Of a stretch of 64,000 nt of DNA, positions 5,672 through 19,558 are shown one piece after another. The first letter of the stretch is position 1; the number at the start of each line of letters is the position of its first letter. The DNA comes from Cellulomonas sp. 73-145. Its GTDB lineage: Bacteria; Actinomycetota; Actinomycetes; Actinomycetales; Cellulomonadaceae. The position numbers were made by a program, and so were the translations under genes. The stretch lies in contig MKTI01000010.1 of NCBI GenBank assembly GCA_001898185.1, positions 124,001 through 188,000 on the forward strand. The letters are read 5' to 3'. The notes beneath the pieces were generated by a model that was given only the letters and a program-made list of their open reading frames with translations, was not told the DNA's origin and did not search any database.

Positions 5672-5864
5672 ACGGGTGACCTCCATACCGTCCGGGACGG
5701 TCCGATGCTGATCGAGTGCTGGTCCAGCGACGCACGCTGATGATCGTCCGAGGGGCTACAACGGGGCGTGACCTCGTCGTGTTCCATCGTGGAGTGAAGG
5801 TGTGGTGAACGCCACTCCAGGGCGGGCCGCCAGGGACCAAAGTCACGATATCGGGGGAGAGGCG

Positions 5865-8228
<2,364 letters not shown>

Positions 8229-8285
8229 CGCCCCTGGCGCTGCACGGTCTGCGGTGCTCGACCGGCCTGAGCCGCCTCCACCTGT

Positions 8286-8313
8286 CGCGCCGATAAGGTG
8301 CATCTGTTATGGC
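8286..8313 (+). other. Left attachment site: host XerC arm and central region, degenerate XerD arm
   Basis: The bases CGCGCCGATAA GGTGCA form an XerC-type arm and six-base central region, but the following 11 bases (TCTGTTATGGC) poorly match a XerD arm. This is the expected hybrid of host left arm and phage attP right arm. Confidence 0.75.
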
Positions 8314-8384
8314 GTCCAGACACCACTGCCTGTAGCGTGGTTCCCACGTCGCACCACCTTCGTTGTCAGGGTGGCCCGGCGAGA

Positions 8385-8418
8385 CGCCCCCGGTGACCGC
8401 GCCAACGGCCCGGGGGCG
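8385..8418. promoter_or_regulatory. Long hairpin between the pV-like gene and the attP-spanning ORF
   Basis: CGCCCCCGG (8385-8393) pairs perfectly with CCGGGGGCG (8410-8418) around a 16-base loop that holds the 12-base motif CCGCGCCAACGG shared with the hairpins before rep and the pV-like gene. It starts 30 bases past the pV-like stop. It may be a terminator or attenuator, a translational operator, or the phage packaging/origin hairpin. Confidence 0.55.
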
Positions 8419-8447
8419 CAACATTGCGCCGGGTAACCGGTGTTACG

Positions 8448-8750
8448 TCAGCGGGAGGAGACCGGCGCAGACGCCGGGAGCACCTTCTGAACCGTGAGCT
8501 TGAGGTTCCGACCCGAGGGGCGCGCGTCGCACACCAGGCGCACCAGCTCGTCCCGCTCCGGGAGCGGGATCGACCCGTCGCTCGGGAAGCGGACGTCGAT
8601 CGCGTCGAACTCCGGCGTCACCAGCCGGGCCTCCACGAAGTCGTACGACACGACCCGGCTCGGGTCGTCGTTGTCGGTGAAGGAGCCGTTCTTCCGCTCC
8701 GACTTCACCACGTTGCCCTCGACCATGACGGTCGCGTTGTTCTGCGCCAT
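8448..8750 (-). CDS. Putative phage single-stranded-DNA-binding (pV-like) protein
   Basis: The 100-aa protein has a beta-rich pattern (TVMVEGNVVKSERKNG, RVVSYDFVEARLVTPEFDAIDVRFP, LKLTVQKVL) that suggests a small OB-type fold, as in filamentous-phage gene V proteins that coat single-stranded DNA and repress translation. I recognise no exact family, so the role is inferred from size, fold pattern and position. The ATG at 8750 has AGAGGTG six bases upstream. A 25-bp hairpin sequence (8766-8790) shared with the rep leader lies 15 bases before the start, and a TAGATA box at 8801-8806 could be its -10. In the circular phage it sits just upstream of the coat operon. Confidence 0.55.
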   Translation of the reverse strand: MAQNNATVMVEGNVVKSERKNGSFTDNDDPSRVVSYDFVEARLVTPEFDAIDVRFPSDGSIPLPERDELVRLVCDARPSGRNLKLTVQKVLPASAPVSSR

Positions 8751-8765
8751 GACGCACCTCTGTTC

Positions 8766-8790
8766 GTTGTCACCCCGCGCCAACGGGGTC
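8766..8790 (-). promoter_or_regulatory. Shared hairpin element, copy 1 (leader of the pV-like gene)
   Basis: These 25 bases are identical to 11767-11791. On the transcribed strand ACCCCG and CGGGGT pair around a TTGGCG loop, followed by GACAAC. The element ends 15 bases before the start codon, next to the ribosome binding site, so it should be in the mRNA leader. A translational operator is the leading idea; a replication-origin hairpin is the alternative. Confidence 0.7.
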
Positions 8791-8855
8791 TGGTGGTGCC
8801 TATCTACACCGCTTCGGAGCCGCCGTGTAGCCACTTGACCGTGGCGCGCCGAACT

Positions 8856-9269
8856 TCACCCGATCGGGCTAAAGCCTGCGGGCACCACGCCGACGTGCAG
8901 CAGCCACTCCATCAGACCACCAGCCCCAGCCATGACCCCGAGCAGGAACCAGGCCCACGGTCGCGTCCGCTGCACCACGATCGGCCGGTCCGCACGACGA
9001 AGCCGTCGCCGGCGCGGCAGCTCGTAGGCCGGCCCCCGCGGCAGCTCACGCATCATCAGCCGCTCGGCCTGCCGGGCCGCTCGCCGGCTGACCTTCGGCG
9101 GATCGACGCGCCGGACCTTGTAGCGCTCCTGCTCGCCTGGCTCGACGCCGCCGTAGCGGCTCGACAGCCACGGATCCATCGCCCCCATGCACTCGGTATC
9201 GGCGCCTGCGGCGCCGGCCTTGACGCCCGTTCGGGTGGTTCTCGCGCGCGCGGCACAGTTATGGCACAT
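8856..9269 (-). CDS. Prophage membrane protein, function unknown
   Basis: The frame encodes up to 137 residues: a basic middle region rich in Arg (residues 60-100), then one clear membrane span near the C-terminus (WAWFLLGVMAGAGGLMEWLL). The start is uncertain. ATG at 9269 has no good ribosome binding site; internal ATGs at 9188 and 9179 would remove a Cys-containing N-terminus, and the latter has a G-rich stretch just upstream. No family is recognised. It lies between the pV-like gene and the divergent plus-strand module, in the same orientation as the structural genes, so a role in assembly or membrane anchoring is possible. Confidence 0.5.
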   Translation of the reverse strand: MCHNCAARARTTRTGVKAGAAGADTECMGAMDPWLSSRYGGVEPGEQERYKVRRVDPPKVSRRAARQAERLMMRELPRGPAYELPRRRRLRRADRPIVVQRTRPWAWFLLGVMAGAGGLMEWLLHVGVVPAGFSPIG

Positions 9270-9553
9270 AGGAACAAGGGAGTCCCGGCCCGGCCGCCTC
9301 TGGCGACCTGGTTTGTAGCATTCCTACAACCCGCGTGCTCAGATAGAGGGCCTTTCGGCGGGCCATCATCGTCGCTCCGTGGACCGCGTCAACCGCGATC
9401 ACCACCCGTGGAGCTCCGGGAAGGTGCTCCGCACCTGCGATGGCCGGCTCCCAGCGTCGGCGGTTGACACAGCCCACTACACGACGTCGGTCCCCTTATC
9501 GAAAGGCAGGGCCAGCCGCAAAGGCGCTGGTCGACCAAGAGGGGAGCCCCACC
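9270..9553. promoter_or_regulatory. Divergent intergenic region of the prophage with a palindrome
   Basis: This 284-bp gap separates leftward and rightward genes. TTGTAG (9313-9318) and CTACAA (9324-9329) form a 6-5-6 inverted repeat suited to a dimeric repressor. The decamer TTCCTACAAC at 9321-9330 recurs at 10010-10019 beyond the plus-strand genes. A perfect TTGACA occurs at 9464-9469, but no well-spaced -10 box follows it. Confidence 0.4.
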
Positions 9554-9802
9554 GTGGCACACACACCGATCCGCCCACCGTTCACCGCCTACACGATCGA
9601 GGTCCGAGAAGGCCGGATCAGCAACGGCACCATGCGCACGGTCGAGCTCGTGCAGCGCGAGGTCGACGGCACCTTCGTGGGCCTCGACCACCTCACCATG
9701 GACCAGGCCCGCGAACTGGCCTCGTGGCTCATCGAGACCGCGAACGCGAGCGACGCAGCTGCAGCACAGGCCCGCGCGATCGAGAACGGGGCCAACTGGT
9801 GA
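9554..9802 (+). CDS. Prophage protein of unknown function, 82 aa
   Basis: The small soluble protein reads as a beta-strand N-terminus (FTAYTIEVREGRISNGTMRTVELVQREVDG cannot be assigned to a family) followed by the helix TMDQARELASWLIETANA. The GTG start at 9554 is chosen because AGGGGAG lies eight bases upstream; longer frames to the left lack a site and are Arg-rich. Its stop overlaps the GTG of the next gene (GTGA), so the two are probably co-translated. They run opposite to almost all other phage genes, the usual position for immunity or regulatory functions in such phages, but no helix-turn-helix is evident. Confidence 0.6.
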   Translation: MAHTPIRPPFTAYTIEVREGRISNGTMRTVELVQREVDGTFVGLDHLTMDQARELASWLIETANASDAAAAQARAIENGANW

Positions 9803-10005
9803 CGGCCGCGCGCTGGCTGGACCACTTCCTCGAAGTAGCCCTCCGCTGGACCACGGGCGCCTCTCTCTTCGTGCTCCTGCTCTGGTGCATCGGCTATGGC
9901 GTCTACGCGTTCGTCATGTTCGCCCGCGAGGCCAGCAGCGGCGCCTACTACGACCGACCGACAAGAGCCGAGAGACGCGCAGCACGCAGGCGGAGAAGGA
10001 GTTAG
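9799..10005 (+). CDS. Prophage single-span membrane protein, 68 aa
   Basis: The 68-residue product has one strong membrane span (GASLFVLLLWCIGYGVYAFV) and a very basic C-terminal tail (RAERRAARRRRRS), so its C-terminus should be cytoplasmic. The GTG start overlaps the stop of the preceding gene by four bases. No family is recognised. It resembles small inovirus membrane proteins in size and charge layout, yet it lies on the other strand from the coat operon; superinfection exclusion or a regulatory membrane role are possibilities only. A strong hairpin ends the unit 15 bases downstream. Confidence 0.6.
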   Translation: MTAARWLDHFLEVALRWTTGASLFVLLLWCIGYGVYAFVMFAREASSGAYYDRPTRAERRAARRRRRS

Positions 10006-10019
10006 CGAGTTCCTACAAC

Positions 10020-10056
10020 ACGACGCCCCTCCCGCAACAATCGGGAGCGGCGTCGT
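10020..10056. terminator. Strong hairpin terminator after the plus-strand module
   Basis: Arms 10020-10034 and 10042-10056 pair over 15 positions with a single C-C mismatch around a seven-base loop, followed on the plus strand by TTTCATCCT. It closes the 9554-10005 unit and may also stop leftward transcription coming from rep. Confidence 0.7.
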
Positions 10057-10108
10057 TTCATCCTACGAGTCGTCGACGACTCTCACGCAGGCGTCCGATG
10101 ATGGCCCG

Positions 10109-10513
10109 ATGCGCTTGTGGGCTACGGGGGAGAGCGTCGCGAGCAGCCCGCGGGAGCTGCGCCGGTCGATGTGGCACGGCCTGACGGGCTCCGAAGCCCT
10201 CGAACTGGCCGATGCGGAGTGCACGCCCGCGCGTCTGGCGATGGAGCCGCTCGAACGGGCGCACGACGTGGCCGTGGAGTACGCGTTGAGGTGCGCGCGG
10301 GCGCTGAACAGCAACGATCTCGCCGGCGCGTTGCGTGCCGCGGCGATCGCAGACGCGGCGTTGGTGACGGAGCAGGCCGAGCTAGACCGGAGCACCGCGC
10401 GCGAGCTGTACGGCGACGGCCAGCGCGTCATTGAGCAGGACGAAGCCGCCTTGTCCGTGCAGCGATCGCAGCCGCGGCCGGCGCATCGTCCAGACCGCTC
10501 GATCGTCGCCTGA
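10109..10513 (+). CDS. Hypothetical helical protein overlapping the 3' end of rep
   Basis: The frame gives 134 residues with actinobacterial codon use (mostly G/C third positions) and a plausible Ala-rich helical make-up (EPLERAHDVAVEYALRCARAL, AALRAAAIADAALVTEQAEL). It lies beyond the 10020-10056 hairpin. It overlaps rep, on the opposite strand, over 132 bases. No good ribosome binding site precedes the ATG, and no family is recognised. It could be a real phage accessory gene or a chance open frame opposite the rep end; codon use makes me lean slightly toward real. Confidence 0.4.
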   Translation: MRLWATGESVASSPRELRRSMWHGLTGSEALELADAECTPARLAMEPLERAHDVAVEYALRCARALNSNDLAGALRAAAIADAALVTEQAELDRSTARELYGDGQRVIEQDEAALSVQRSQPRPAHRPDRSIVA

Positions 10514-11752
10514 CCGTCGAGCTGCAGCCAGCGCGATCGCTGCCGCCCTGCCGCGCGCGATGCCGCGTAGGACGCGCTCGACCTGGTGCCAGGTGCCGTC
10601 GCCCACCTGGACGACCTCGACGGCCTTCTGCAGGCCCCAGACGCCCCAGAACCGGCCGATCGGGACGCCGGCTGCGACCCACGCTGCTGGCGGGTCGTTC
10701 TGGTAGGACTTGGCGCCGGTCTTGGCGCCGTGCTTGCCGAAGTAGACCGAGAGCCGGCGCGGGTCAGTGCAGGCCGCCATGCCGGCGAAGTCGACGGCCT
10801 TGGTGCCGTGCCCGTGCCGCGCGCGGTGCCGCGCCCGCTCCGTGTCGGGTACCGGGCACGTGCACCACGCGAGGCCCAGGGTGCCGTCGTCCTTGACGAT
10901 CACCTGTGCCTCGAGGTCGTAGCCCAGCCACGCGTCGTAGCCGAGGTGGTCGACGCCGTAGCCCAGCGCTGCGTCGTAGCCGAGGTGGTCGACGTGGCAC
11001 CGGTGGCACACCAGCTCGGAGGCTCCGACGATCTCCGACCACGTGTCGGCGAACCAGTCCTCGAACGTCTTGGTCCCGTCGGCCGTCATCGCCGGCACGC
11101 GAATGAGCATGTGCTGGTGTGGTGCGCCGCGCTTCTGCGTCTCGAACTTCCACAGCCCGGCCCACGGCACGTCGAGCTCCTTGCGCCAGCGCCACTGCAG
11201 CCGGCGGATCTTGTGCTTCCACTCTCGGCCGTCGCGCACCAGCGGTTCCCACACGCCCGGCAGTGTGACGGTGACGAGCGCCTGGACGCCGGGGCCGGCC
11301 ATCCAGGTCGAGTAGTCCAGTTCCCCGAGGGTGCGGTGCATGCGCTTCCTCGAGGCGCGGGACCAGCCGCGCACGACGCCGCGCCGACCACCCTTGAGGC
11401 CGGCCATGACGTCCTCGACCAGGTTCTCCGCGACGTCGTAGACCTCTTGGGTGCTCGCCGCGCGCGAGCCGAAGGTGCGGACATCTGCGATCTGCTCGCC
11501 CCACGTCGGGCGGGCTTGCATGCCGCCGACGAAGCGCCGCCGCAGCGCCAGGGTGCCGGGGGAGACGAGCAGCTCGTAGAGGTGTTGTCCGTCGGCGCTG
11601 ACGGAGCCGACGTGTTCGCCGAGCCGGTGCCGGACGATCGCGGCGACCGACTGGACGTCGTCGGTGGAGGGGAATGCGGGTTCGGCCAGGCCAGCCGCGA
11701 TGCCGTCGAGGGACGGGTCTGCGACTGGCCTGGCCGCCGTGAGGACGGCCAA
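10382..11752 (-). CDS. Rolling-circle replication initiator (HUH endonuclease) of the phage
   Basis: The 456-aa Rep should nick the plus-strand origin and start rolling-circle replication. Motif I is near LVTVTLP (160-165). Motif II is APHQHMLIRVP with H212 and H214, the His-x-His metal site. Candidate catalytic tyrosines are Y337 (SVYFGKHGAK) and Y350 (AKSYQ). A 13-residue tandem repeat (VDHLGYDAxLGY, 254-279) sits between motifs II and III. The TTG start is supported by AGGAG six bases upstream and the in-frame fit; the 25-bp hairpin shared with the pV-like gene ends 14 bases before it. It closes the leftward structural gene array. Confidence 0.85.
   Translation of the reverse strand: MAVLTAARPVADPSLDGIAAGLAEPAFPSTDDVQSVAAIVRHRLGEHVGSVSADGQHLYELLVSPGTLALRRRFVGGMQARPTWGEQIADVRTFGSRAASTQEVYDVAENLVEDVMAGLKGGRRGVVRGWSRASRKRMHRTLGELDYSTWMAGPGVQALVTVTLPGVWEPLVRDGREWKHKIRRLQWRWRKELDVPWAGLWKFETQKRGAPHQHMLIRVPAMTADGTKTFEDWFADTWSEIVGASELVCHRCHVDHLGYDAALGYGVDHLGYDAWLGYDLEAQVIVKDDGTLGLAWCTCPVPDTERARHRARHGHGTKAVDFAGMAACTDPRRLSVYFGKHGAKTGAKSYQNDPPAAWVAAGVPIGRFWGVWGLQKAVEVVQVGDGTWHQVERVLRGIARGRAAAIALAAARRSGDDRAVWTMRRPRLRSLHGQGGFVLLNDALAVAVQLARGAPV
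10916..10993 (-). repeat. Two tandem 39-bp units inside rep
   Basis: Two in-frame 39-bp units encode VDHLGYDAALGYG and VDHLGYDAWLGYD. The duplication keeps the frame and lies between the HUH and tyrosine motifs, so it looks like a recent tandem expansion in a tolerant loop. Confidence 0.85.
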
Positions 11753-11766
11753 CCTGGGCTCCTGCT

Positions 11767-11791
11767 GTTGTCACCCCGCGCCAACGGGGTC
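11767..11791 (-). promoter_or_regulatory. Shared hairpin element, copy 2 (leader of rep)
   Basis: Identical over 25 bases to 8766-8790, it ends 14 bases before the TTG start of rep, just before its AGGAG. The same position in both leaders points to shared post-transcriptional control of rep and the pV-like gene, or to an origin element duplicated beside each. Confidence 0.7.
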
Positions 11792-11819
11792 GGTGGACAG
11801 GACGGGCACTGCTCCCAGG

Positions 11820-12272
11820 TCAGCCGGAGGCGGCCGCTCCGGCGGCTGCAGCGGAGATCGCTCCCCAGGGCAGCTCGTCGTCCTCTACGGCCCTGGCCGG
11901 GAGCGCCCGCACCGCGCGACCGTCCAGGAGTTCGCCGGCTGCGTGCCGGCCCACAGCGCGCGCCGGCGCTTCGCTGCTCGGCGCGCCGCTGTGTTCCGTC
12001 ACTCCGCCGGCCGTCATGTGCAGGTGCACCGCGGCCTGTGCGATCGCTGCAGCCTGTGCGTCTGCCTTCGCAGCTGCGATCGCTTCTGCCTTCGCGACTG
12101 CCACGGCGACCGCCGATGCCTTGTCCCGGTGGCCGGCCCACCAGGCCAGCGCCACGACGGCGACCACGCCGAGCAGGACTGCGCTGGCCACCGGGTGCGG
12201 CATGGCCGCTGCGTTGCGCGAGACGACGACGCCGCCGATGAATCCGGCGGCCACGTACAGGAGCCGGCGCAT
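11820..12272 (-). CDS. Prophage membrane protein with Ala-rich helix, 150 aa
   Basis: Two membrane spans open the protein (LLYVAAGFIGGVVVS and SAVLLGVVAVVALAWWAGH). Then comes a long Ala/Lys helix with repeating K-A-x-A units (AVAVAKAEAIAAAKADAQAA) that could form a coiled coil, and a low-complexity tail. The ATG overlaps the stop of the upstream acidic protein (TGATG), so it belongs to the structural operon. Placed just after the Zot ATPase and acidic protein, it may supply a membrane part of the assembly/export machine that the short Zot protein lacks. No family match is recognised; the role is inference. Confidence 0.65.
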   Translation of the reverse strand: MRRLLYVAAGFIGGVVVSRNAAAMPHPVASAVLLGVVAVVALAWWAGHRDKASAVAVAVAKAEAIAAAKADAQAAAIAQAAVHLHMTAGGVTEHSGAPSSEAPARAVGRHAAGELLDGRAVRALPARAVEDDELPWGAISAAAAGAAASG

Positions 12273-12484
12273 CAGTCGGACTCGATCACTTGCGAGATGT
12301 CGAGCCCGAGTTCGTCGCACAGGTCTTCGACGTCCTCGAACAGGTCATCGCGTTCTTCGATGAGGTCGGCCATGTCTTCGTCGCCGTCGTCAAGCGCGTC
12401 GATCTCGGCCTGCACGTCGTTCAGCTCTGCGATGAGTCCTTCGAGTGTTTCCAGGGCGTTGTAGTGCTCTTCTATGCCGCTCAT
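12272..12484 (-). CDS. Small acidic prophage protein, 70 aa
   Basis: The 70-residue protein is strongly acidic and helical (AELNDVQAEIDALDDGDEDM, EERDDLFEDVEDLCDELG), probably a coiled coil in the cytoplasm. The ATG at 12484 has AGGAG eight bases upstream and overlaps the Zot stop by four bases; its own stop overlaps the next start. Tight coupling to the Zot ATPase suggests a partner in assembly, or a protein that displaces the DNA-binding protein from phage DNA, but no family is recognised. Confidence 0.7.
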   Translation of the reverse strand: MSGIEEHYNALETLEGLIAELNDVQAEIDALDDGDEDMADLIEERDDLFEDVEDLCDELGLDISQVIESD

Positions 12485-13095
12485 GATGCTTTCTCCTGTT
12501 CGACGCTGTGGCGGCCGGCTGCAGCGGTTGTGCGCGCTCGTGGTGCGACCGACAGGGTCGGTCGTTCGACCACGGCCGCCTCTGCCTTGATCGCAAACCG
12601 GGTGTCGTAGGCGCGTGCGACGCGCATGGAGAACCGGTGCACGTACCGGTCGGCGGGCTTGCCTCGGCGCAGCTTGTGCATCTCCCACGCGGACGCGGAG
12701 AACGCCATCGGGTGCCCGCGCCAGCCGCCCCATGCGTTCGTGACCCAGCCGTAGTTGGTGTTGTCGCGCAGCTGCTTGAGCACCTTGGATTCGTGCTGGG
12801 ACGTGTAGATCAGGTCGTGCCCGTCTTTGCGGGTCTGCGACAGTTTTTCGTACCACTCCGGTTTCAGCGCCCGGAAGTCGTTCGCGCCGAGCTTGAGGTG
12901 CACTTCGTCCCAGAAGATCAGCCCGGGCGGCATGAACGGGTCCAAGCATTCGTCGAACGTGACGAATTCGACGTTCGGGTGGTCGATCGGGGTGATCGAG
13001 TAGCACTGGCGGCCCTGGTCGGCTTCCAGCAGCAGCCGGCGCACGCCTTCGTACGTCTTTCCTTGGCCCGGCAGGCCGAAGATTCCTTCGATCAC
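12481..13095 (-). CDS. zot: Zot/pI-type phage assembly ATPase
   Basis: The 204-aa protein is the ATPase of filamentous-phage morphogenesis, which drives extrusion of the phage through the membrane. Walker A is GLPGQGKT (7-14) and Walker B is LIFWDEVHL (D63, E64), followed by QTRKDGHDLIYTSQH, the sensor-like segment of Zot proteins. Unlike the pI and CTX Zot proteins (about 350-400 aa), it stops after the cytoplasmic domain, with no membrane span or external domain. The GTG start overlaps the upstream stop by four bases and has GGAG seven bases upstream. Neighbouring membrane proteins may provide the missing anchor. Confidence 0.88.
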   Translation of the reverse strand: MIEGIFGLPGQGKTYEGVRRLLLEADQGRQCYSITPIDHPNVEFVTFDECLDPFMPPGLIFWDEVHLKLGANDFRALKPEWYEKLSQTRKDGHDLIYTSQHESKVLKQLRDNTNYGWVTNAWGGWRGHPMAFSASAWEMHKLRRGKPADRYVHRFSMRVARAYDTRFAIKAEAAVVERPTLSVAPRARTTAAAGRHSVEQEKAS

Positions 13096-13673
13096 TTCAC
13101 CACTCCGAACACGTAGACCAGAACCAGCAGGTGCCCGACGTACCAGGTGACCGGCCGCCGGCCCGCGACGGCGAACACCGCAGGCAGGCGCGAACCGATC
13201 GCCACGAGCGCGGCCCGCGGGATGTAGTGCCCGGCGACCATCAGTGCGAGCAGCGCTTCGAGCGGGTACCCGTTGCCCATGCCGTGCACCCCGTTCGCCA
13301 GCGCCGTCACCGCGGCGATCGCGACAACGGCGGGCCCAGCCGGGCCGGTCCACCGCGCCAGCACGAGAAGTGCGGCAGCGACGGCGTACAGGAGCAGGAC
13401 GTTCGGGTTGTCGATCCACGGCACAAACGCCGGCAGCAGGAAACCCGTCGCAGCGATCGCCGCGTGCCGCCAGGTCAGACGGCGCGCGAGGTGCCCGGAC
13501 AGGACGAAGAACACCGGCACGGCAAGCCGCCCGATCGTCAGCCGCACGGGTTCTGCCCCGAGTGCGCGTGCCACGTGGTCGACGATCATGCAGACGATCG
13601 CCGCGCCGCGCAGCCGGTCCAGTTCGGACGCTCGAACCCGCCCCGGCGCCACGAGCTGCATGTCCGCGCTCAT
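13092..13673 (-). CDS. TraX-like polytopic membrane acetyltransferase-family protein
   Basis: The 193-aa protein has six to seven membrane spans. The N-terminal ELDRLRGAAIVCMIVDHVAR and the following TIGRLAVPVFFVLSGHLARR have the shape of TraX proteins and related membrane acyltransferases (D-x-L-R-G...D-H, then I-G-R-L-A-P-F). TraX of the F plasmid N-acetylates pilin. Here the gene lies in the coat operon, four bases overlapped with Zot downstream and with a 34-aa membrane peptide upstream. Modification of the major coat protein is a natural hypothesis; a structural membrane role in assembly is the alternative. The ATG at 13673 has GGAG six bases upstream. Confidence 0.65.
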   Translation of the reverse strand: MSADMQLVAPGRVRASELDRLRGAAIVCMIVDHVARALGAEPVRLTIGRLAVPVFFVLSGHLARRLTWRHAAIAATGFLLPAFVPWIDNPNVLLLYAVAAALLVLARWTGPAGPAVVAIAAVTALANGVHGMGNGYPLEALLALMVAGHYIPRAALVAIGSRLPAVFAVAGRRPVTWYVGHLLVLVYVFGVVK

Positions 13674-13774
13674 CGCCGGCTCCGATGCCGGCGCCGCTCT
13701 CGCAGCCAGTCCCACACCATCCGGTGCGCGATGTAGAGCACGAACCCACCGACGATCCAGCCGACCTCGTGCAT
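13670..13774 (-). CDS. 34-aa membrane peptide, pVII/pIX-like candidate
   Basis: ATG at 13774 opens a 34-codon frame: one membrane span (VGWIVGGFVLYIAHRMVW) followed by a very basic tail. Its start overlaps the stop of the upstream 84-aa protein (TGATG), and its stop overlaps the ATG of the TraX-like gene (ATGA), so it fills exactly the space between two real genes. In length and topology it matches the minor tip proteins pVII (33 aa) and pIX (32 aa) of Ff phages. Too short for usual gene callers. Confidence 0.7.
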   Translation of the reverse strand: MHEVGWIVGGFVLYIAHRMVWDWLRERRRHRSRR

Positions 13775-14028
13775 CAGTCGGACCCCCAGATCTGGTGGTA
13801 GATCCACACCGCGAAGTCCCACAGGTACAGCGCCAGTTGCAGGGCCAGGAGCACCCCGATGACTGTGATGAGCGCCTGCAGCGGAATGAATGAGTTTGCC
13901 GCCGCGGTCCAGCCGATCACTGTGGTCGACGTGCTCTGTCCGAGCGTGACAGGTCCTGTTGCCGGGAAGAGCCCAATCAGAGCCGAGAGCGCCCCAAGGG
14001 CCGCGCTGATCAGCGCGTCGGTGATCAT
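13774..14028 (-). CDS. 84-aa minor membrane protein, pVI-like candidate
   Basis: The hydrophobic 84-residue protein has two membrane spans: ALISAALGALSALIGLF near the N-terminus and ALITVIGVLLALQLALYLWD near the C-terminus. Its place directly after the long pIII-like gene equals that of gene VI in filamentous phages, whose product anchors the end of the particle in the membrane. The ATG overlaps the upstream stop by four bases (ATGA) and its own stop overlaps the next ATG. The pVI assignment rests on size, topology and gene order, not on recognised sequence similarity. Confidence 0.7.
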   Translation of the reverse strand: MITDALISAALGALSALIGLFPATGPVTLGQSTSTTVIGWTAAANSFIPLQALITVIGVLLALQLALYLWDFAVWIYHQIWGSD

Positions 14029-15947
14029 GATTTGCCGCCGAATGACGCCGCGACGCGGTGATAGGCGATCCAGCAGCCCCCGCCGATGATGACCACTTCT
14101 AGCGCGTGCCGTAGCAGTTGTCCCCAGGTCGTTTGCCCGGCCTGCTGGACCCCCGCGCACAGATCGAATGACGCGGACGAGCCCATTGGTCCACCGGCCA
14201 TCTGCAACGGCAGGTTCGTGCAATCGCCGGACGCGGACAGCCCGCTAATGACCGCGTTGGTGAACTGCACGCCACCCACCGCGACATTCACCGGCGGCCG
14301 CGCCGAAGCGTCACCCACGAAAGACTTCCAGGCCGTGCTACTCGCCGTCGACGGGACGAATGCGTCCTTCAGTGCGCACGCCGTGGCCTTGTAGGCCCAC
14401 CAGTTGTTGAACAGCGCAGACCACGAGAACGGGGGAGGGCAGGACTGGTCTTGCGGGCTGGTCGACGGCTGGCTGGACGGCGCTTCTCCGGTGGTGGGGT
14501 TCGACAGGACCCCGGTCCCTGTTTCCGCGGCGGGGAACGCGTGGGCGTAGGCGGCGCACTCGGTCAGCGCGACCGCGTGGGTGCCGTAGCTGCACTCGTA
14601 TTCGGTGCCCGACTTCGTTGCGGTGTTGCTGCCGGTCGCGGTGCCCTGGCTGGTCTCGGTCCACCAGCTGGTGCAGACCGCGGGGTTCGTGAAGCAGGAC
14701 ACCAGCGTCGTTGCGCCCGGTGCGGAGATCCGTGAGAGCAGCAGCTGGCACGGGCTCGCAGCGTTGGCGCACTCGGGGTAGTTGGTCGCGACGGTCCCGA
14801 CCTCCGCCGGCAGCGTCCACTGGTAGATCACCGTCCCGGTCCCGTTGGTGACCTCCTCGACCTTGACCGAGGCCACCATCCCCTGCGCGCACTGCGCGGC
14901 CGGGACCGTAGGCCAGGCGCTGGCCGTCTCCGAGAACGCCGCCGTGGACGCCACGCCGCCGGCGCCCTGAGTGCACGTCCAGGTGTTCCGGAGCGTCCGC
15001 TGCGGGTCAGCGCTCACCCCGGTGGGCCGATTCGGGTAGCCGACGGGGTACCACTTCAGCGTGTAGCTGGGCGACCCGGAGTCCTGCCCCTGGAACGTGA
15101 ACTCCAGGTGGTCGAAGGTGTACCGGGAGTCGCCAGACGTCACGTTCGCGTTGCTGCCGGTCACCGACGGCACGGCGCACGACGTCTGCAGCTGCCCGGT
15201 GCCAAAGCCGATCGTCTTACTCACCGACAAGGTGCCTGCCAGGAACACCGCCGACGCCCCGATGCTCGGGTTCTGTGCGGTGCCGACGCCGCCCGTCCCG
15301 ACGCATGTGCCGGACATCGTGATGGTCGCCCCAGCGCTGCCACTGGTCGCGCCGTACGCCGGCGCGGTCGGGTTCGTGACCGTGGCGTGCCCGCTGGTCC
15401 AGCCGCCGCCCCAGTACGTCCCGGCGTACGCCGACGTCATCGTCCCCGTCGCGTTCGTGTTGTTCGCCCAGCCCGCCGGCATCGGCGTGACGTCCGAGTT
15501 CGGCACGTACGACGGCGCACCCTGGACCCCCGCACACCCGGAGGTCCCCGCGAGGGTGCCCAGGTCACAGAAGAAGTTCCCCGACGTCGGCAGGCCAAAC
15601 GTCTGCGCCAGCCCCGTTCCCAGCTGCGTGCCCACCAGGAACCCGCTGACCGCCGTGGCCGCGCCACCGGCAGCACTGGTGCCGATCTTCGCGGCGGCAG
15701 ACCCTGCCGTTCCCGTGCCCACGGCCAGTTCCGGGTGCGCTTGCAGGAACGCGTTCCACTGCGCCGCCGTCATCGCCGACGACGCCGAGCTGTATGCGCT
15801 GCCGGGCAGCCCGATCGGCGCGGGCACATTGGGGGCCACCGCCAGCGCCGAGGCCGGCGACGCAGAGCCTGGTCCCCAGACGATCAGGAGTGCGCCGACA
15901 AGTGCGGCAGCGCCGAGCTGCAGGGCTCGTCGTGGCTGCGCGTGCAC
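14025..15947 (-). CDS. Large exported minor coat / host-attachment protein (pIII-like)
   Basis: The 640-aa protein begins with a basic stretch and hydrophobic core ending in ASALA (cleavage near residue 36). It continues as a Gly/Ser/Thr-rich ectodomain with many cysteines that could pair (CSYGTHAVALTEC, CPPPFSW, CDLGTLAGTSGC), and ends with one membrane span (LEVVIIGGGCWIAYHRVA) and a short basic tail. That layout is typical of filamentous-phage adsorption proteins, which sit at the tip and bind the host. The GTG start follows GGGAGG. The gene lies between the coat gene and the pVI-like gene, the classical order. Confidence 0.82.
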   Translation of the reverse strand: MHAQPRRALQLGAAALVGALLIVWGPGSASPASALAVAPNVPAPIGLPGSAYSSASSAMTAAQWNAFLQAHPELAVGTGTAGSAAAKIGTSAAGGAATAVSGFLVGTQLGTGLAQTFGLPTSGNFFCDLGTLAGTSGCAGVQGAPSYVPNSDVTPMPAGWANNTNATGTMTSAYAGTYWGGGWTSGHATVTNPTAPAYGATSGSAGATITMSGTCVGTGGVGTAQNPSIGASAVFLAGTLSVSKTIGFGTGQLQTSCAVPSVTGSNANVTSGDSRYTFDHLEFTFQGQDSGSPSYTLKWYPVGYPNRPTGVSADPQRTLRNTWTCTQGAGGVASTAAFSETASAWPTVPAAQCAQGMVASVKVEEVTNGTGTVIYQWTLPAEVGTVATNYPECANAASPCQLLLSRISAPGATTLVSCFTNPAVCTSWWTETSQGTATGSNTATKSGTEYECSYGTHAVALTECAAYAHAFPAAETGTGVLSNPTTGEAPSSQPSTSPQDQSCPPPFSWSALFNNWWAYKATACALKDAFVPSTASSTAWKSFVGDASARPPVNVAVGGVQFTNAVISGLSASGDCTNLPLQMAGGPMGSSASFDLCAGVQQAGQTTWGQLLRHALEVVIIGGGCWIAYHRVAASFGGKS

Positions 15948-16025
15948 GGTGCCTCCCTGGGGTGCGGTGTGGGGGAGCGGCGGCCCCGTCCGTCGTGCCG
16001 GGCCGGACGGGGCCGCCAGAGGGTG

Positions 16026-16340
16026 CTACTTGGACTTGGCGGCCTTCTTGCCCCAGCCCAGGAGCATCCCGACGGAGATGCCGATGACCGCCAGCCCGAG
16101 CACGGCCACGATGAGGTGGCCCTGCAGGTACGAGGTCAGCGACGTGAAGAACGTGTCGCCGGCCCCGCCGGTCGGGTCGGTGCTCGGGGTGGTCGCGAAC
16201 GCGGCCTCCGGCGCCAGGACGGTCACCGCGGCGGCGCTGAGGGTCAGCGCGATGCGGTTGCGGGTCTTGGACATGAACCGGGCGAACCGGCCCACCTTCA
16301 CCGGGGCCGGAGCGGCCTCGGTCCTCTCGATCGTCTGCAC
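16026..16340 (-). CDS. Major coat protein precursor (pVIII-like)
   Basis: The 104-aa precursor has a long basic N-region (VGRFARFMSKTRNR), a hydrophobic core (IALTLSAAAVTVLAP) and an AFA cleavage site at residue 49. Removal leaves about 55 residues: a Thr/Ser/Gly/Asp N-terminus, a short amphipathic stretch, one membrane span (LIVAVLGLAVIGISVGMLL) and the basic tail GWGKKAAKSK that would contact the DNA. This matches the roughly 50-residue pVIII design. The GTG start has AAAGGAG with seven bases spacing, the strongest ribosome binding site of the operon, in keeping with a product needed in thousands of copies. Confidence 0.9.
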   Translation of the reverse strand: MQTIERTEAAPAPVKVGRFARFMSKTRNRIALTLSAAAVTVLAPEAAFATTPSTDPTGGAGDTFFTSLTSYLQGHLIVAVLGLAVIGISVGMLLGWGKKAAKSK

Positions 16341-16364
16341 GATCGGTCTCCTTTCGAGACGCGC

Positions 16365-16463
16365 TCAGCCCACCTTGAGCAGAGCAGCCACCGCAGTCCG
16401 AAGGACGGCCCCCACGCAGAGGCCGACCACGAGCGCGGACCACAGCAGACCGAGGTCACTCAT
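16365..16463 (-). CDS. 32-aa membrane peptide, pIX/pVII-like candidate
   Basis: ATG at 16463 gives a 32-residue peptide that is almost entirely one membrane span (LLWSALVVGLCVGAVLRTAV) with a single basic residue near each end of the C-terminal half. It overlaps the end of the 48-aa peptide gene and ends just before the coat-protein ribosome binding site. Length and position beside the major coat gene match pIX of Ff phages (32 aa, encoded just upstream of gene VIII). No sequence family is claimed. Confidence 0.65.
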   Translation of the reverse strand: MSDLGLLWSALVVGLCVGAVLRTAVAALLKVG

Positions 16464-16602
16464 CGGGAGTGCCGCCGGCCGACAACATCGCTCCGACCGT
16501 CCAGCCGGTCAGCGCGAGAACCACGGCGACGGACAGGCCCGCCGCCAGGACGAGCTGCGCGAACAGCGCGGGCAGCCCGTCGGTGAAGGTCAGAGGGTCC
16601 AC
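16456..16602 (-). CDS. 48-aa membrane peptide of the coat operon
   Basis: GTG at 16602 lies one base beyond the stop of the upstream secreted protein and opens a 48-residue frame with a short acidic N-terminus, one membrane span (LVLAAGLSVAVVLALTGWTV) and a polar acidic C-terminus. It overlaps the ATG of the 32-aa peptide by eight bases. There is no clear ribosome binding site of its own, so translation by coupling is likely. It resembles a small phage structural membrane protein; no family is recognised. Confidence 0.6.
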   Translation of the reverse strand: MDPLTFTDGLPALFAQLVLAAGLSVAVVLALTGWTVGAMLSAGGTPDE

Positions 16603-16603
16603 G

Positions 16604-16984
16604 TCAGCGCCTGCCAATCAGCAGGACCAGGCACGCGGCCACTAGCGCGACCAGGAGTGAGCCCTGCACCGCCAGGTACGACCGCAGCCGGCGCAGTTCG
16701 TCCGCTGTTGCCGCCTGTAGGCATTCCGGGGACGCCGAAGTGCACGAGTCCAGGAACGACCCGAGCCATCCACCAGAGGCTGAGGGTGAGGAGCCCGACG
16801 ATGACGACGGGCTTGACGAACTTGTTGAGCGCAGCGAGCCGCCGACGAAACCAGCCGACGCGGTAGACACCGACGCCATCTGTGCGGAGATGGGCGAAGC
16901 GAGCGCAGGGCTGCCCGTCAGGACCAGGCCCGTGCACAGCGCAGACGCCACCAGCAAGCCGCGCGCGGCCCGAGGCGTGCGCAT
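16604..16984 (-). CDS. Secreted Ser-rich membrane-anchored coat-operon protein, 126 aa
   Basis: The protein starts with a signal peptide (MRTPRAARGLLVASALCTGL, cleavage near ALA at 29). A Ser-rich external region (STSSSSPSSSSGSSPSASGG) and two cysteines (CTSASPEC) follow, then a C-terminal membrane span (LLVALVAACLVLLIGRR). This is the same exported, C-terminally anchored design as pIII, in miniature, so a second tip or minor coat protein is plausible. Its ATG overlaps the stop of the 35-aa peptide (TGATG). No family match is recognised. Confidence 0.68.
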   Translation of the reverse strand: MRTPRAARGLLVASALCTGLVLTGSPALASPISAQMASVSTASAGFVGGSLRSTSSSSPSSSSGSSPSASGGWLGSFLDSCTSASPECLQAATADELRRLRSYLAVQGSLLVALVAACLVLLIGRR

Positions 16985-17091
16985 CAGAAGTCCCGGCCAT
17001 CGCCGGCCTCCATGTCCAGCACGAGCCGCACCCCGGCGTCCAGCACCGCGAAGGCGAGGGCCAGGGCGCCGATAACGCCCGCGGCGAGCAT
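16984..17091 (-). CDS. 35-aa membrane peptide near the start of the coat operon
   Basis: ATG at 17091 opens a 35-residue peptide with an N-terminal membrane span (AAGVIGALALAFAVLDAGV) and an acidic tail (DMEAGDGRDF). Both ends overlap neighbours by one base (TGATG at each junction), so it is locked into the operon by coupling. It has no ribosome binding site of its own. With the 32-, 34- and 48-aa peptides it forms a set of tiny membrane proteins typical of filamentous particles. Confidence 0.6.
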   Translation of the reverse strand: MLAAGVIGALALAFAVLDAGVRLVLDMEAGDGRDF

Positions 17092-17279
17092 CAGGCGGCC
17101 CGCCGTCCGAGCAGGGCTGCGGCTCCTGCGGCTCGCGCGGCGTCGCGGCCGTGGCCGGCTGCCAGCAGCGCTTCGGCCTGGTCCGAGAGCATCCCGGCTG
17201 CGATCCGCCGCGCGGTCCGCGCGCCGATCTCGGACTCACCGAAGCCGGCCAACGACCGAGCGCGTTCGATCTCCGACAC
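17091..17279 (-). CDS. First ORF of the coat operon, 5'-truncated by integration
   Basis: In the prophage the only start is GTG at 17279, giving 62 residues (ARSLAGFGESEIGARTARRI...), without a ribosome binding site. The frame stays open upstream through the attachment core to 17381, where host DNA adds a TAA. If the unit is closed into its circle, the frame continues across the core into 8304-8347 and begins at a GTG preceded by AAGG, making a 111-residue protein (VGTTLQAVVS...SSRCADLREHLPVG...). So the intact gene spans attP and the chromosomal copy lacks its first part. The product is soluble and helical, of unknown function. Confidence 0.6.
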   Translation of the reverse strand: MSEIERARSLAGFGESEIGARTARRIAAGMLSDQAEALLAAGHGRDAARAAGAAALLGRRAA

Positions 17280-17364
17280 CGCCGCAGCCGCGTACCCGGA
17301 GCACGTCGTCCAGCGGTCCGCGAGGCCGACCGGCAGGTGTTCCCGCAGGTCAGCGCATCGACTT

Positions 17365-17392
17365 GACGCCGATAAGGTGCATTATGTCATTT
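17365..17392 (+). other. Right attachment site: full dif-like site
   Basis: GACGCCGATAA, GGTGCA and TTATGTCATTT give the 11-6-11 layout of a dif site; E. coli dif has ...CGCATAA, six bases, TTATGTTAAAT. The left arm would come from the phage and the right arm from the host, so a functional dif is rebuilt after integration. Confidence 0.8.
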
Positions 17393-17443
17393 TGCCGATG
17401 AGAGACGGCGAGAGGAGCTGCTGCGCCCCTCCCCGCCGGACCC

Positions 17444-17998
17444 TCAGGCGGCGAAGGACACCTCGGCGGTCGGCACCACGGCGGCGGTGCGGCCCGGCGC
17501 GCTCTGGTAGCTCCAGTACAGGTTGGTGTGCGTGACGACGTCGCCCGGCGACGGCGCACCCCAGGCCGTGAGGTCCTCCGTGGTGTGCGCGTCGCCGACC
17601 AGCGTCACGTCGTACCCGCGGGTGAACGCTCCGTGGATCGTCGACCGCACGCAGGCGTCGGTCTGGGCACCGCAGACCACCAGCCGTCCGACACCCGCCT
17701 CGGCGAGCACGGCCTCGAGGACCGTCTCCTCGAACGAGTCGCCGTACGTCTTGGGCACCAGCGGCTCCGAGTCCTGCCGGACCAGCTCCGACACGTACTG
17801 CCAGGCCTGCGTGCCGACCTGGAGCTCCTGGGACGAATGCTGCACCCAGACCACCGGCACACCCTGGGCACGCGCCCGCTCCACGAGGGCCCGGACGTTG
17901 GCGATCACCCGGTCCCGGTCATGAGCGTGAGCCATGACGCCGTTCTGCACGTCGACCACCACCAACGCAGTACGGTCCCGACCGGTCAAGGTGCTCAC
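17444..17998 (-). CDS. Isochorismatase-family cysteine hydrolase
   Basis: The 184-aa protein is an isochorismatase-like hydrolase. The family's catalytic triad is visible as D16 (LVVVDVQNGV), K83 (PKTYGDSF) and C116 (CGAQTDACVRST). Members hydrolyse amides such as nicotinamide, carbamoyl compounds or isochorismate; the substrate is unknown here. It is the first chromosomal gene right of the prophage. The GTG start at 17998 gives a complete N-terminal strand; no operon partner is close. Confidence 0.87.
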   Translation of the reverse strand: MSTLTGRDRTALVVVDVQNGVMAHAHDRDRVIANVRALVERARAQGVPVVWVQHSSQELQVGTQAWQYVSELVRQDSEPLVPKTYGDSFEETVLEAVLAEAGVGRLVVCGAQTDACVRSTIHGAFTRGYDVTLVGDAHTTEDLTAWGAPSPGDVVTHTNLYWSYQSAPGRTAAVVPTAEVSFAA

Positions 17999-18076
17999 GG
18001 CGCTCTCCTTCGGTGCTGCTCTCGGTGCTCGTCAGCGACCGCCTCACGGTACCGACGCCCACCGACACGGCTGCCG

Positions 18077-18604
18077 TCAGGGGCGCAGCACCAGCTGGTA
18101 GCGCTCCTCGACCAGCTCGGGGTCCCGCGGCAGGCGTTGCCGCTCCCCCGTCCTGGCGAACCCCGCGCGCACGTAGAGGTCGCCCGCCGGCGTGTTGCCG
18201 TCCAGCACCCACAACGACACCGTGCGCGCGTCCTCGGCGGCGGCTGCGGCCTTGACCGCGTCCAGAAGGGCCCACGCCACACCGCGACGGCGTGCCTCGG
18301 GTGCGACCCACAACGACACCACGTGCCGGTCGTCCTCCGGCGACCCCGGCTCCTGCATCATGCTGACGAGCCCGCGCGGCACGTCCTCGTCGTCGAGGGC
18401 GAGCCACGTCGGCGTCGCCCGCAGCCGCATCCGCCAGTGCTTCTCGGTGAACAGCAGCTCGCGCTCGAGCGTCGCCCCGAACGTCTCCGGCGACTCGCGC
18501 AGCGCACGGAGCCGTACCTGGGCCACCTCACGCCAGGACGACTCGTCCACCCGCACGATCCGCACCAGCACAGGATGCCGTATCGCCGTGACCTTCCGGT
18601 CCAC
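18077..18604 (-). CDS. GNAT-family N-acetyltransferase
   Basis: The 175-aa protein has the GNAT fold: strand-helix N-terminus (RVDESSWREVAQVRLRALRE), central strand WLALDDEDVPRGLVSM, the acetyl-CoA loop VSLWVAPEARRRGVAWALL (R-x2-G-x-A form) and the late strand VSLWVLDGNTPAGDLYVRAGF. It should acetylate an amine on a small molecule or protein; the target is unknown. The GTG at 18604 lacks a good ribosome binding site, and an in-frame GTG at 18571 (VLVRIVRVDESSW) may be the true start, since it better fits the family N-terminus. Confidence 0.85.
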   Translation of the reverse strand: MDRKVTAIRHPVLVRIVRVDESSWREVAQVRLRALRESPETFGATLERELLFTEKHWRMRLRATPTWLALDDEDVPRGLVSMMQEPGSPEDDRHVVSLWVAPEARRRGVAWALLDAVKAAAAAEDARTVSLWVLDGNTPAGDLYVRAGFARTGERQRLPRDPELVEERYQLVLRP

Positions 18605-18681
18605 GGAGCACCGTGGTATGGCACGCGCAGGCCTGCGGCCACCCGTTCAGCCGAGCGCCGGTCACGCCTCGGGCCACGACC

Positions 18682-18834
18682 TCAGCCGAGCACCGTGTCC
18701 GATGCGGGGTCACCACCGTGGCCCGCAGGGTCGGGCACGGAACGCGCCACGTCGGCCACCTGCTCCTCAGGGCGTGGCGGGACGGTCTCGTCGTCCTCGA
18801 GCACCGGCACGTCCGGACCGGGGTGCTGCGTCAC
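18682..18834 (-). CDS. Small acidic hypothetical protein, 50 aa
   Basis: A GTG at 18834 with AGGAG six bases upstream opens a 50-codon frame that is rich in Pro, Asp and Glu and has no hydrophobic core (PVLEDDETVPPRPEEQVADV), so it should be disordered. It lies 80 bp beyond the stop of the metallo-hydrolase gene on the same strand. The good ribosome binding site supports it; the low complexity keeps confidence modest. No function can be proposed. Confidence 0.4.
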   Translation of the reverse strand: MTQHPGPDVPVLEDDETVPPRPEEQVADVARSVPDPAGHGGDPASDTVLG

Positions 18835-18913
18835 CGGTCGCTCCTCTCCTCGTCCGGGCCGCCCGCACCGGGTGGCCCACCACCGACCGGCAGGCCGCCG
18901 GTCGGAGCTCCAG

Positions 18914-19558
18914 CTAGAGCTTCACGACCTCGCCGGGCTGCGCCGCGACCACGGTGGCCGAGGTCAGCCGCGCCAGCCAGTCCCCCGCCGAGCGAAGACC
19001 CGCCTCGCTCAGCCACGCGTCGTGGATCGGCACGGCCCGAGCGGCGCCGACGGACCGGACCCAGTCCACCGCGTCGGCCATCCGCAGCCACGGCCCGCTG
19101 ACCGGCGTCAGGGCGACCTCGACGACGGCCCCCGACGGCGGTACGACGAACGCGTCCCCGGGATGCAGCACCCCGCCCACCAGGTAGCCGACGTTGGTCC
19201 CCCGAGGCAGGTCCGGGTGGATGACCGCGTGCCACTCCCCCACCACCTGGACGTCCAGACCGCCCAGCGTCAGCCGATCGCCGCCGCGCACCTCGTGGAG
19301 CCGGGCGCGCTCGGCACCAGCCTCGGCCACGACGTCCAGCGCCGCGGCGGGGCCCCAGACCGGCAGGCCCGATGCCGCCACCGCAGGCCCGTCGACGTGG
19401 TCGACGTGGTCGTGCGTCAGCAGCACGCCGTCCGCCCCGGCCAGCACCGTCGCCGACTCCCCGTACACGCCGGGGTCGATCACGAGGGCCCCGTCGGGCC
19501 CCTCGATGCGGACGCAGGACTGCGCCCAGCGGGTCAGTCGGATCGGCATACGCGCCAT
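18914..19558 (-). CDS. MBL-fold metal-dependent hydrolase (UlaG-like)
   Basis: The 214-aa protein is a metallo-beta-lactamase-fold hydrolase. LTHDHVDHVDGP carries the H-x-H-x-D-H metal site, preceded by the strand ALVIDPGVYG and followed by GEWHAVIHPD and HPGDAF, with a final histidine in VPIHDAW. The pattern is closest to UlaG/YtnP-type L-ascorbate-6-phosphate lactonase relatives, many of which have other substrates. The ATG at 19558 is chosen over 19582; MPIRLTRW at 19549 is also possible. It diverges from the ParA-like gene, whose promoter box is only 60 bp away. Confidence 0.87.
   Translation of the reverse strand: MARMPIRLTRWAQSCVRIEGPDGALVIDPGVYGESATVLAGADGVLLTHDHVDHVDGPAVAASGLPVWGPAAALDVVAEAGAERARLHEVRGGDRLTLGGLDVQVVGEWHAVIHPDLPRGTNVGYLVGGVLHPGDAFVVPPSGAVVEVALTPVSGPWLRMADAVDWVRSVGAARAVPIHDAWLSEAGLRSAGDWLARLTSATVVAAQPGEVVKL

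What the first reader, a model, noticed from the sequence alone, without database searches (positions are those of the whole stretch)
8288..17382. Filamentous phage integrated at the dif site of an actinobacterial chromosome
The two ends share CGCCGATAAGGTGCAT, and the right copy extends into a full 11-6-11 dif-like site while the left copy has a degenerate XerD arm. Removing 8304-17382 leaves a perfect host dif (CGCGCCGATAA GGTGCA TTATGTCATTT). This is the layout of CTX-type phages that hijack XerC/XerD, here in a Gram-positive high-GC host and with no phage integrase. Filamentous phages of Gram-positives are rarely described.
Basis: partly seen in the sequence, partly recalled or inferred. 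Interest (0 to 1): 0.85.

Follow-up and report, generated by a model that had tools for sequence, protein, structure and literature searches.

The report
Filamentous prophage seated at host dif
A 9-kb filamentous-phage genome sits inside the chromosome-dimer-resolution site of a high-GC Gram-positive bacterium, apparently put there by the host's own recombinases, and similar phages use the same seat in several related bacteria.

Summary
Confirmed and widened. The 16-bp repeat is real; its right copy is the only dif-like site in the 3.87-Mb host assembly. Same-genus genome G027 carries the empty site: 573 of 600 columns identical to the joined flanks, with an unbroken dif. In nine relatives dif lies 44-53% of contig length from dnaA. 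The 9,079-bp insert encodes a Zot/pI-type ATPase, coat, secreted adsorption-like and pVI-like proteins and an HUH replication protein; no recombinase was found in it, while the host has XerD and a XerC-like protein elsewhere. It is a filamentous prophage integrated at dif. Of 10 Zot-positive genomes found, 7 carry the element at dif; one has it as a 6.9-kb circular contig, two on short contigs without dif. Attachment sites share the XerC arm and whole central hexamer (6 of 6 XerC-side cases), closer to TLC/GGI than to the CTX hairpin type. The mechanism is known in Proteobacteria; the search listings I saw showed none described in Actinomycetes. A relative (L072) joins this filament module to a tectivirus-like polymerase between terminal inverted repeats: possibly a linear filamentous phage.

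The parts
8288..8303 (+). attL: host XerC arm + central hexamer GGTGCA, followed by a degenerate XerD arm (TCTGTTATGGC)
8304..17382 (-). prophage, 9,079 bp, most genes on the minus strand; the ends cannot be placed more finely than within the 16-bp repeat
   Evidence: empty site in L032/L033
8448..8750 (-). small protein, candidate ssDNA-binding protein (pV-like) by position and size; weakly similar (39% over 64 aa, E 8e-9) to an ORF at the ends of L104
   Evidence: no Pfam/PHROG match (7, 8); profile test against Philemon pV negative (123)
8856..9269 (-). ORF of unknown function
9440..9802 (+). ORF of unknown function on the opposite strand
9896..10513 (+). small protein convergent with rep, homologous in three other dif-seated elements (L084, L085, L087); candidate regulator (inferred)
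10382..11752 (-). replication protein, HUH type (RGAPHxH and YF..H..KT invariant in the 4 homologues aligned)
   Evidence: PF23343 E 1e-4, below cut-off; L085 and L087 homologues above cut-off, L104 just below
11820..12266 (-). membrane protein, similar to proteins in L072 and L078; start not settled
12272..12484 (-). small acidic protein, 70 aa
12481..13095 (-). Zot/pI-type assembly ATPase, Walker A GLPGQGKT, no transmembrane segment by hydropathy; exact start not settled
   Evidence: PF05707, 20.5 bits against cut-off 20.3; phrog_197 E 1e-14
13092..13715 (-). membrane acyltransferase/TraX-like protein, cargo or host-surface modifier (inferred)
   Evidence: 41% in L078
13670..13822 (-). small ORF, 50 aa
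13774..14028 (-). pVI-like hydrophobic protein ending YHQIWGSD, the end conserved in relatives
14025..15947 (-). large secreted protein with an N-terminal hydrophobic signal-like stretch, adsorption (pIII-like) candidate
16026..16340 (-). major coat candidate: signal-like segment, second hydrophobic segment, basic C-terminus WGKKAAKSK
16456..16617 (-). 53-aa single-TM protein, minor coat candidate
16590..17000 (-). ORF A, membrane protein with C..H...C....H motif, conserved in L072
16604..16984 (-). ORF B in another frame, overlapping ORF A almost fully; signal-like start, Ser-rich, C-terminal TM
17091..17279 (-). 62-aa ORF
17365..17392 (+). attR = working dif candidate: GACGCCGATAA GGTGCA TTATGTCATTT
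5802..8228 (+). host gene, UvrA-like protein (left flank)
   Evidence: 98% identical in L032
17444..17998 (-). host gene, isochorismatase-like by recall (right flank)
   Evidence: 96% identical in L032; name recalled

Best explanation
A filamentous (Tubulavirales-type) prophage that has no recombinase of its own and enters the chromosome at dif through the host's XerC/XerD. The circular double-stranded phage form carries a dif-like site with a good XerC arm and a central hexamer identical to the host's, but a poor XerD arm. Recombination gives attL (host XerC arm + phage side) and attR (phage XerC arm + host XerD arm), so one working dif remains and chromosome dimer resolution is kept. The phage then replicates by rolling circle from its HUH Rep and exports filaments with its own pI/Zot ATPase without lysis. 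Shown: empty site, single dif, gene content, no recombinase found in the element, recurrence in relatives. Inferred: XerC/XerD action, circular intermediate, filament production.
For: Empty site in two same-genus genomes. Only dif-like site in the assembly. dif lies 44.5-53.1% of contig length from dnaA in 9 genomes (7 in one contig, G027 and G459 in two). Zot just above Pfam cut-off, phrog_197 E 1e-14, and pairwise profile match to Philemon pI (E 1.6e-24, one target). HUH motif invariant in the 4 Reps aligned. Order coat - pIII-like - pVI-like - pI - Rep as in Propionibacterium phages B5 and Philemon, with extra genes in between. Six PF00589 matches in the host genome, none on the window's contig; one is XerD above cut-off (330.3 against 329.6 bits), one best fits XerC but below cut-off (290.6 against 335.15). 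Seven of 10 Zot-positive genomes carry the element at dif, and that site is the only dif-like site in 6 of these 7 assemblies; G459 has one more, weak, 2-mismatch hit. attL and attR share the central hexamer in 6 of 6 XerC-side cases although it differs between hosts. G058, same genus, has a contig with a 123-bp terminal repeat, i.e. a circle of about 6,946 bp, with related Rep, pIII-like and ATPase genes, and its dif lies on another contig.
Against: No excised circle, virion or Xer dependence was observed for this element. Rep's Pfam match is below cut-off and Rep has no match in 50,697 phage records. Coat, pIII-like, pVI-like, Rep and SSB candidates gave no profile match to Philemon's. The Zot and Rep structure models were too poor to use (pLDDT 52.9 and 39.1). 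A close Zot is in only 1 of 81 genus genomes; the profile adds two remote ones in the genus, G058 and G092. The six XerC-side cases were recognised by direct repeats of 13-14 bp or more, which favours finding shared hexamers. Which Xer enzyme acts first cannot be read from sequence.
Confidence: 0.9

Rival explanations
1. VGJ-type: the double-stranded form recombines by XerC only, needing homology only on the XerC side of the central region; the identical hexamer is inherited, not needed. (A rival about the sub-mechanism, not about dif integration.)
For: Degenerate XerD arm and a possible longer spacer before a TTATG-like arm (G000 attP has TTATGGCG 10 nt after the XerC arm); VGJ attP has a 7-nt centre (Table III), and so has the second site in G302.
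Against: The whole hexamer matches the host in 6 of 6 XerC-side cases, including positions that vary between hosts.
Confidence: 0.3
2. CTX-type: the packaged single strand folds two inverted dif-like sites into a hairpin that XerC joins to dif.
For: Single-sided degenerate site and one working dif left, as in CTX. In G459 (L087) inverted arm-like 9- and 8-mers with 1-2 mismatches do lie near the junction, at about the number expected by chance (own estimate).
Against: No inverted XerC or XerD arm (2 or fewer mismatches) within 250 nt of the G000 junction; folding of the G000 coding strand is about 1.9 SD below 60 mononucleotide shuffles, the other strand not at all. The element in G264 lies in the opposite gene orientation relative to dif, which a strand-specific hairpin would not readily give.
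Confidence: 0.08
3. A decayed relic that no longer leaves the chromosome.
For: Close Zot in only 1 of 81 genus genomes; no circle seen; attL degenerate.
Against: The recognisable genes are open; close relatives of the module exist elsewhere (Zot 79% in L078, 70% in L072); a circular cousin exists in the genus.
Confidence: 0.15
4. A non-viral integrative element that uses Xer (GGI-like) and carries a Zot-type ATPase.
For: The coat candidate or its L072 homologue weakly resembles TrbC/VirB2 pilins or a conjugation membrane protein (E 0.0016; E 0.0034).
Against: Compact 9-kb size, filamentous-phage gene order and ATPase family; no relaxase, coupling protein or other secretion-system gene among the ORFs scanned; only a TraX-like match.
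Confidence: 0.04

Closest known systems
Propionibacterium phages B5 and Philemon (Bifilivirus, Paulinoviridae, Tubulavirales)
   Same: Filamentous phages of an actinobacterium; same order coat - pIII - pVI-like - pI - Rep; pI profile match E 1.6e-24.
   Different: 5.8 kb against 9.1 kb, fewer genes between these; no profile match for coat, pIII, pVI, Rep or SSB; no XerC-like arm followed by a XerD-like arm seen in either genome.
TLCphi and the gonococcal genomic island (Xer-exploiting elements)
   Same: att with good XerC arm and central region and divergent XerD arm; integrated by the host's Xer enzymes (passages of PMC5357621).
   Different: Gram-negative hosts; order of Xer cleavage known there, not here; GGI is not a phage.
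VGJphi and CTXphi (Vibrio)
   Same: Filamentous phages in dif via XerC/XerD (passages of PMC3089051).
   Different: CTX uses two inverted sites, not found in G000; the VGJ centre differs from dif on the XerD side, here it is identical.
Cryptic inoviruses (Roux et al. 2019, PMC6813254; passages seen)
   Same: pI-based discovery of filamentous phages in many phyla, including proposed families tied to monoderm hosts.
   Different: 'xer' and 'xerc' have 0 occurrences in the main text held; supplements not readable here, so some of these elements may be in its tables.

Membership tests
Tubulavirales (filamentous phages) | pI/Zot-type morphogenesis ATPase | tested here: met
   PF05707 just above cut-off; phrog_197 E 1e-14; Philemon pI E 1.6e-24
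Tubulavirales (filamentous phages) | Small coat protein with signal and membrane segment, basic C-terminus | tested here: met
   Hydropathy and sequence; homologues in L072 and L078. No convincing family-model match, none to the Philemon coat
Tubulavirales (filamentous phages) | Rolling-circle HUH replication protein | tested here: met
   PF23343 below cut-off for G000, above for the homologues in L085 and L087; motifs invariant in the 4 aligned
Tubulavirales (filamentous phages) | Filamentous virion with circular ssDNA | not testable with these tools
   Needs microscopy and nuclease assays
Paulinoviridae | Similarity of pI and coat protein to Bifilivirus | tested here: inconclusive
   pI related; coat, pIII, pVI, Rep and SSB gave no match. 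Not filed in this family
Xer-exploiting elements (IMEX) | Integrated at dif with a dif-like attP, leaving one complete dif | tested here: met
Xer-exploiting elements (IMEX) | No recombinase of its own | tested here: met
   No PF00589 match on contig C10; none among the ORFs scanned with Pfam and PHROGs
Xer-exploiting elements (IMEX) | Integration depends on host XerC/XerD | not testable with these tools
   Needs gene removal or in vitro recombination
CTX-type | Two inverted dif-like sites folding in the single strand | tested here: not met
   For G000, no inverted arm with 2 or fewer mismatches within 250 nt; for G459 not excluded
TLC/GGI-type att | XerC arm and central region like dif, XerD arm divergent | tested here: met
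   6 of 6 XerC-side elements; definition from PMC5357621 passages

The most novel reading that the evidence does not exclude
Actinomycetes carry an unrecognised lineage of Xer-exploiting filamentous phages whose filament module moves between three ways of life: a rolling-circle prophage seated on either the XerC or the XerD side of dif, an unintegrated circle, and, in L072, a linear genome with terminal inverted repeats copied by a tectivirus-type protein-primed polymerase. The last would be a filamentous phage that has given up circular single-strand replication.
Probability: 0.45. Interest if true: 0.87.

Novelty: new variant of a known kind. Interest (0 to 1): 0.62.

Why it matters
dif hijacking by filamentous phages is well described for vibrios and xanthomonads; here it recurs in Gram-positive Actinomycetes, where few filamentous phages have been characterised. 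It gives natural att/dif pairs with host-matched central hexamers, including one on the XerD side, to test which Xer acts first outside Proteobacteria. It also offers dif-based discovery of such phages, and a lead (L072) to a possible linear filamentous phage.

Tried and rejected
CTX hairpin model: judged unlikely for lack of an inverted site in G000. Dual-coding of ORFs A and B (16590-17000 / 16604-16984): A is well conserved with L072 (z 26), B less so (z 6.8), and B may ride on A's conservation; against L084 both are weak (z 2.1 and 3.2) and B has no similarity to the L085 candidate; left as suggestive. A second dif-like site in L048 (G021): the stretch between holds a transposase-like ORF (recalled, IS481-like) and no recognised phage gene; taken as chance. 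Structures: Zot pLDDT 52.9 and Rep 39.1, too poor, so no fold search was run. Plasmid records: no Zot match. Rep, an L085 Rep and the pIII-like protein: no match in phage records. Further IMG/VR scans: the coat alignment found only L072, the wider Zot alignment L072 and one remote contig, Rep nothing. Rfam: 0 matches in 5000-20000. PADLOC: 0 families for the 6 proteins given. Zot-type matches: 1 of 81 genus genomes (single protein), 6 of 396 order (alignment A1), 2 of 394 class and 5 of 200 family (alignment A5); the draws overlap and are not summed. Rep alignment A8 used 4 of the homologues seen (L086 and L078 fragments and the L084 and L088 Reps left out). The SSB profile left out L104, whose frame was wrong. 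In one search the row 'o16604 short' was in the wrong frame and is not used; two searches gave a partial-codon warning. L110 was fetched and not used, the second G302 site having been found in L088.
Full report
Observation. The two copies of CGCCGATAAGGTGCAT are at 8288-8303 and 17367-17382. The right one is part of GACGCCGATAA GGTGCA TTATGTCATTT; the left one follows host sequence and runs into TCTGTTATGGC. One hit (2 or fewer mismatches) to the dif pattern exists in the 3.87-Mb, 14-contig host assembly, and it is the right copy. The Frankia dif quoted as suggested in PMC3025954 (passages seen) is CACGCCGATAATGCACATTATGTCAAGT, so the site fits the phylum. The pattern hits 50 of 58 genomes drawn as relatives, a few only by weak 2-mismatch hits; the reversed control hits 2 of 58. 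From (dnaA; best dif hit), the dif-dnaA distance as a share of contig length is G003 51.9%, G033 48.5%, G011 50.4%, G006 51.6%, G021 53.1%, G014 51.2%, G286 48.8%, G459 49.4%, G027 44.5% (9 of the 10 genomes; G000, in 14 contigs, could not be measured; G027 and G459 are in two contigs). This is where dif is expected.

Empty site. G027 (L032) has the UvrA-like gene (98%), which starts 2.5 kb before dif, and the isochorismatase-like gene (96%), 81 bp after the start of dif, around an unbroken dif with the same central hexamer. The joined window flanks align to it with 573 of 600 identical columns and 1 gap column; G034 (L033) gives 546 of 620 with 23 gap columns and an exact site. Neither relative has a close Zot gene.

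What the insert is. The genes run mostly on the minus strand: two overlapping small membrane ORFs, a 53-aa TM protein, the coat candidate, a 640-aa secreted protein, a pVI-like protein, a TraX/acyltransferase-like protein, a Zot/pI ATPase, two small proteins, an HUH Rep, then ORFs of unknown function and a small protein in the place where B5-type phages carry their ssDNA-binding gene. ATPase: PF05707 E 3.6e-4 (20.5 bits, cut-off 20.3), phrog_197 E 1e-14, and a pairwise profile match of its family to the pI of phage Philemon at E 1.6e-24. Rep: PF23343 below cut-off here but above it in the L085 and L087 homologues, with RGAPHxH invariant in the 4 aligned. The order coat - pIII-like - pVI-like - pI - Rep is that of Propionibacterium phages B5 and Philemon, with extra genes in between. 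Against close kinship: five other protein families gave no profile match to Philemon, and Rep and the pIII-like protein found nothing among 50,697 phage records. The Zot protein found two records, at about 30% identity.

Relatives at dif. Ten distinct Zot-positive genomes came up: G000, G058, G092, G205, G264, G286, G302, G459, G483, G930. Seven sit at dif. Six show the G000 layout with duplicated XerC arm plus centre: G000 9,079 bp, G286 8,187, G264 7,972, G459 8,111, G092 8,064, G930 7,625. G302 is the mirror case: a complete dif at L088:4792, the phage on the XerD side, and a second dif-like site at about 12,790 with a perfect XerD arm, a poor XerC arm and a 7-nt centre. In 6 of these 7 assemblies the site is the only dif-like hit; G459 has one further weak hit. 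G058 holds the phage as a 7,069-bp contig with a 123-bp terminal repeat, i.e. a circle; it has two one-mismatch matches to a XerC arm but no complete dif-like site, and its dif lies on another contig. G205 and G483 have the gene on contigs of 10.3 and 5.5 kb in which no dif-like site was found, with dif on other contigs of fragmented assemblies, so their seat cannot be told. As control, 0 of 40 dif loci fetched without regard to phage have a second half-site (two of them reach only 2.8 kb upstream).

Mechanism. In the six XerC-side cases the hexamers are GGTGCA, GGTACA, TGTGCA, TGCACA, TGGACA and TGGACG; in each, attL and attR agree over the whole hexamer and diverge 0-2 bp later. These cases were recognised by repeats of 13-14 bp or more, which favours shared hexamers; but all seven Zot-positive genomes with dif in the fetched stretch were resolved, so none was lost for lack of homology. 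By the scheme in PMC5357621 (passages) this is the TLC/GGI pattern: XerC arm and centre like dif, XerD arm divergent. VGJ-type exchange needs less homology and is not excluded. CTX-type folding is unlikely for G000; in G459 arm-like inverted matches exist at about chance number (own estimate). The host has a XerD above the curated cut-off and a XerC-like protein below it, and no tyrosine-recombinase match on the window's contig. Integration and excision by Xer, and production of filaments, are inferred.

L072. The one IMG/VR contig with a close Zot (70%; others are at 27-29%) has homologues of the coat (42%), pIII-like (27%), pVI-like (34%), ORF A (30%) and ORF 11820 (42%) in the same order, but no Rep match. 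Its other half has a B-family polymerase (PF03175 E 2e-15; 39.7% identity over 94% of the query to Rhodococcus phage Toil, family Tectiviridae), a homologue of Toil gp9 (40%, E 4e-19) and a third, weak match (E 0.002). Its two ends are exact 14-bp inverted repeats. Of seven Toil proteins tested, only gp9 and the polymerase match it; coat, packaging ATPase, LysM, receptor-binding and endolysin proteins do not. Of its own seven filament-side proteins none matches the six polymerase records tested (L090, L109, L112-L115, some truncated; L113 has Toil's length and is probably Toil). A chimeric contig would not be expected to carry matching ends, but codon usage of the two halves correlates only moderately (r 0.40), so assembly error is not excluded; no terminal protein was identified. 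Of 297 order genomes searched with this polymerase, one weak match came up. That replication is protein-primed is inferred from the polymerase's relatives.

Literature. In the listings shown by full-text searches (up to 20 titles each, often fewer than the hits; some had none) I saw no paper on a dif-integrated filamentous phage in Actinobacteria or a filamentous phage with protein-primed replication. I read passages only; supplements, most subscription papers and preprints were not searchable. PMC10061712 (passages) states that only two Gram-positive hosts had been reported before its own. PMC12451628 (passages) describes Philemon.

Verdict. A real, well-placed prophage, a new variant of a known kind: Xer-exploiting filamentous phages, here in Actinomycetes with several relatives.

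Noticed in passing
L072:1-9954: IMG/VR contig that joins this phage's filament module to a tectivirus-type replication block (protein-primed-type polymerase), with exact 14-bp terminal inverted repeats: possible linear filamentous phage.
   Followed up: partly
L104:1-7069 (G058): Same-genus contig with 123-bp direct terminal repeat, about 6,946-bp circle, with B5-like ATPase, related Rep and pIII-like genes and no complete dif-like site: an unintegrated filamentous phage.
   Followed up: partly
L088:4792-12820 (G302): Filamentous prophage with a B5-like ATPase on the XerD side of dif, mirror image of the window's case, with a 7-nt centre in the second site.
   Followed up: partly
16590-17000 and 16604-16984: Two ORFs on one strand in different frames overlapping almost fully, both with counterparts in L072.
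   Followed up: partly
9896-10513: Small protein convergent with rep, homologous in four dif-seated elements; candidate regulator.
   Followed up: partly
L085:5527-13499 (G264): Element lies in the opposite gene orientation relative to dif compared with the window's element.
   Followed up: no
about 8383-8420: Strong GC-rich hairpin just inside the left end, seen also near the left ends in L084 and L087 in the junction folds; terminator or packaging signal.
   Followed up: no
17376-17381: The dif centre begins GG (GGTGCA) in only three same-genus genomes among the best hits (G000, G027, G034), against TG in the others; the phage copy matches it.
   Followed up: no
52501-54500 and 61001-62000: G+C dips to 0.67-0.70 in a 0.75 background; possible other foreign DNA.
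   Followed up: no
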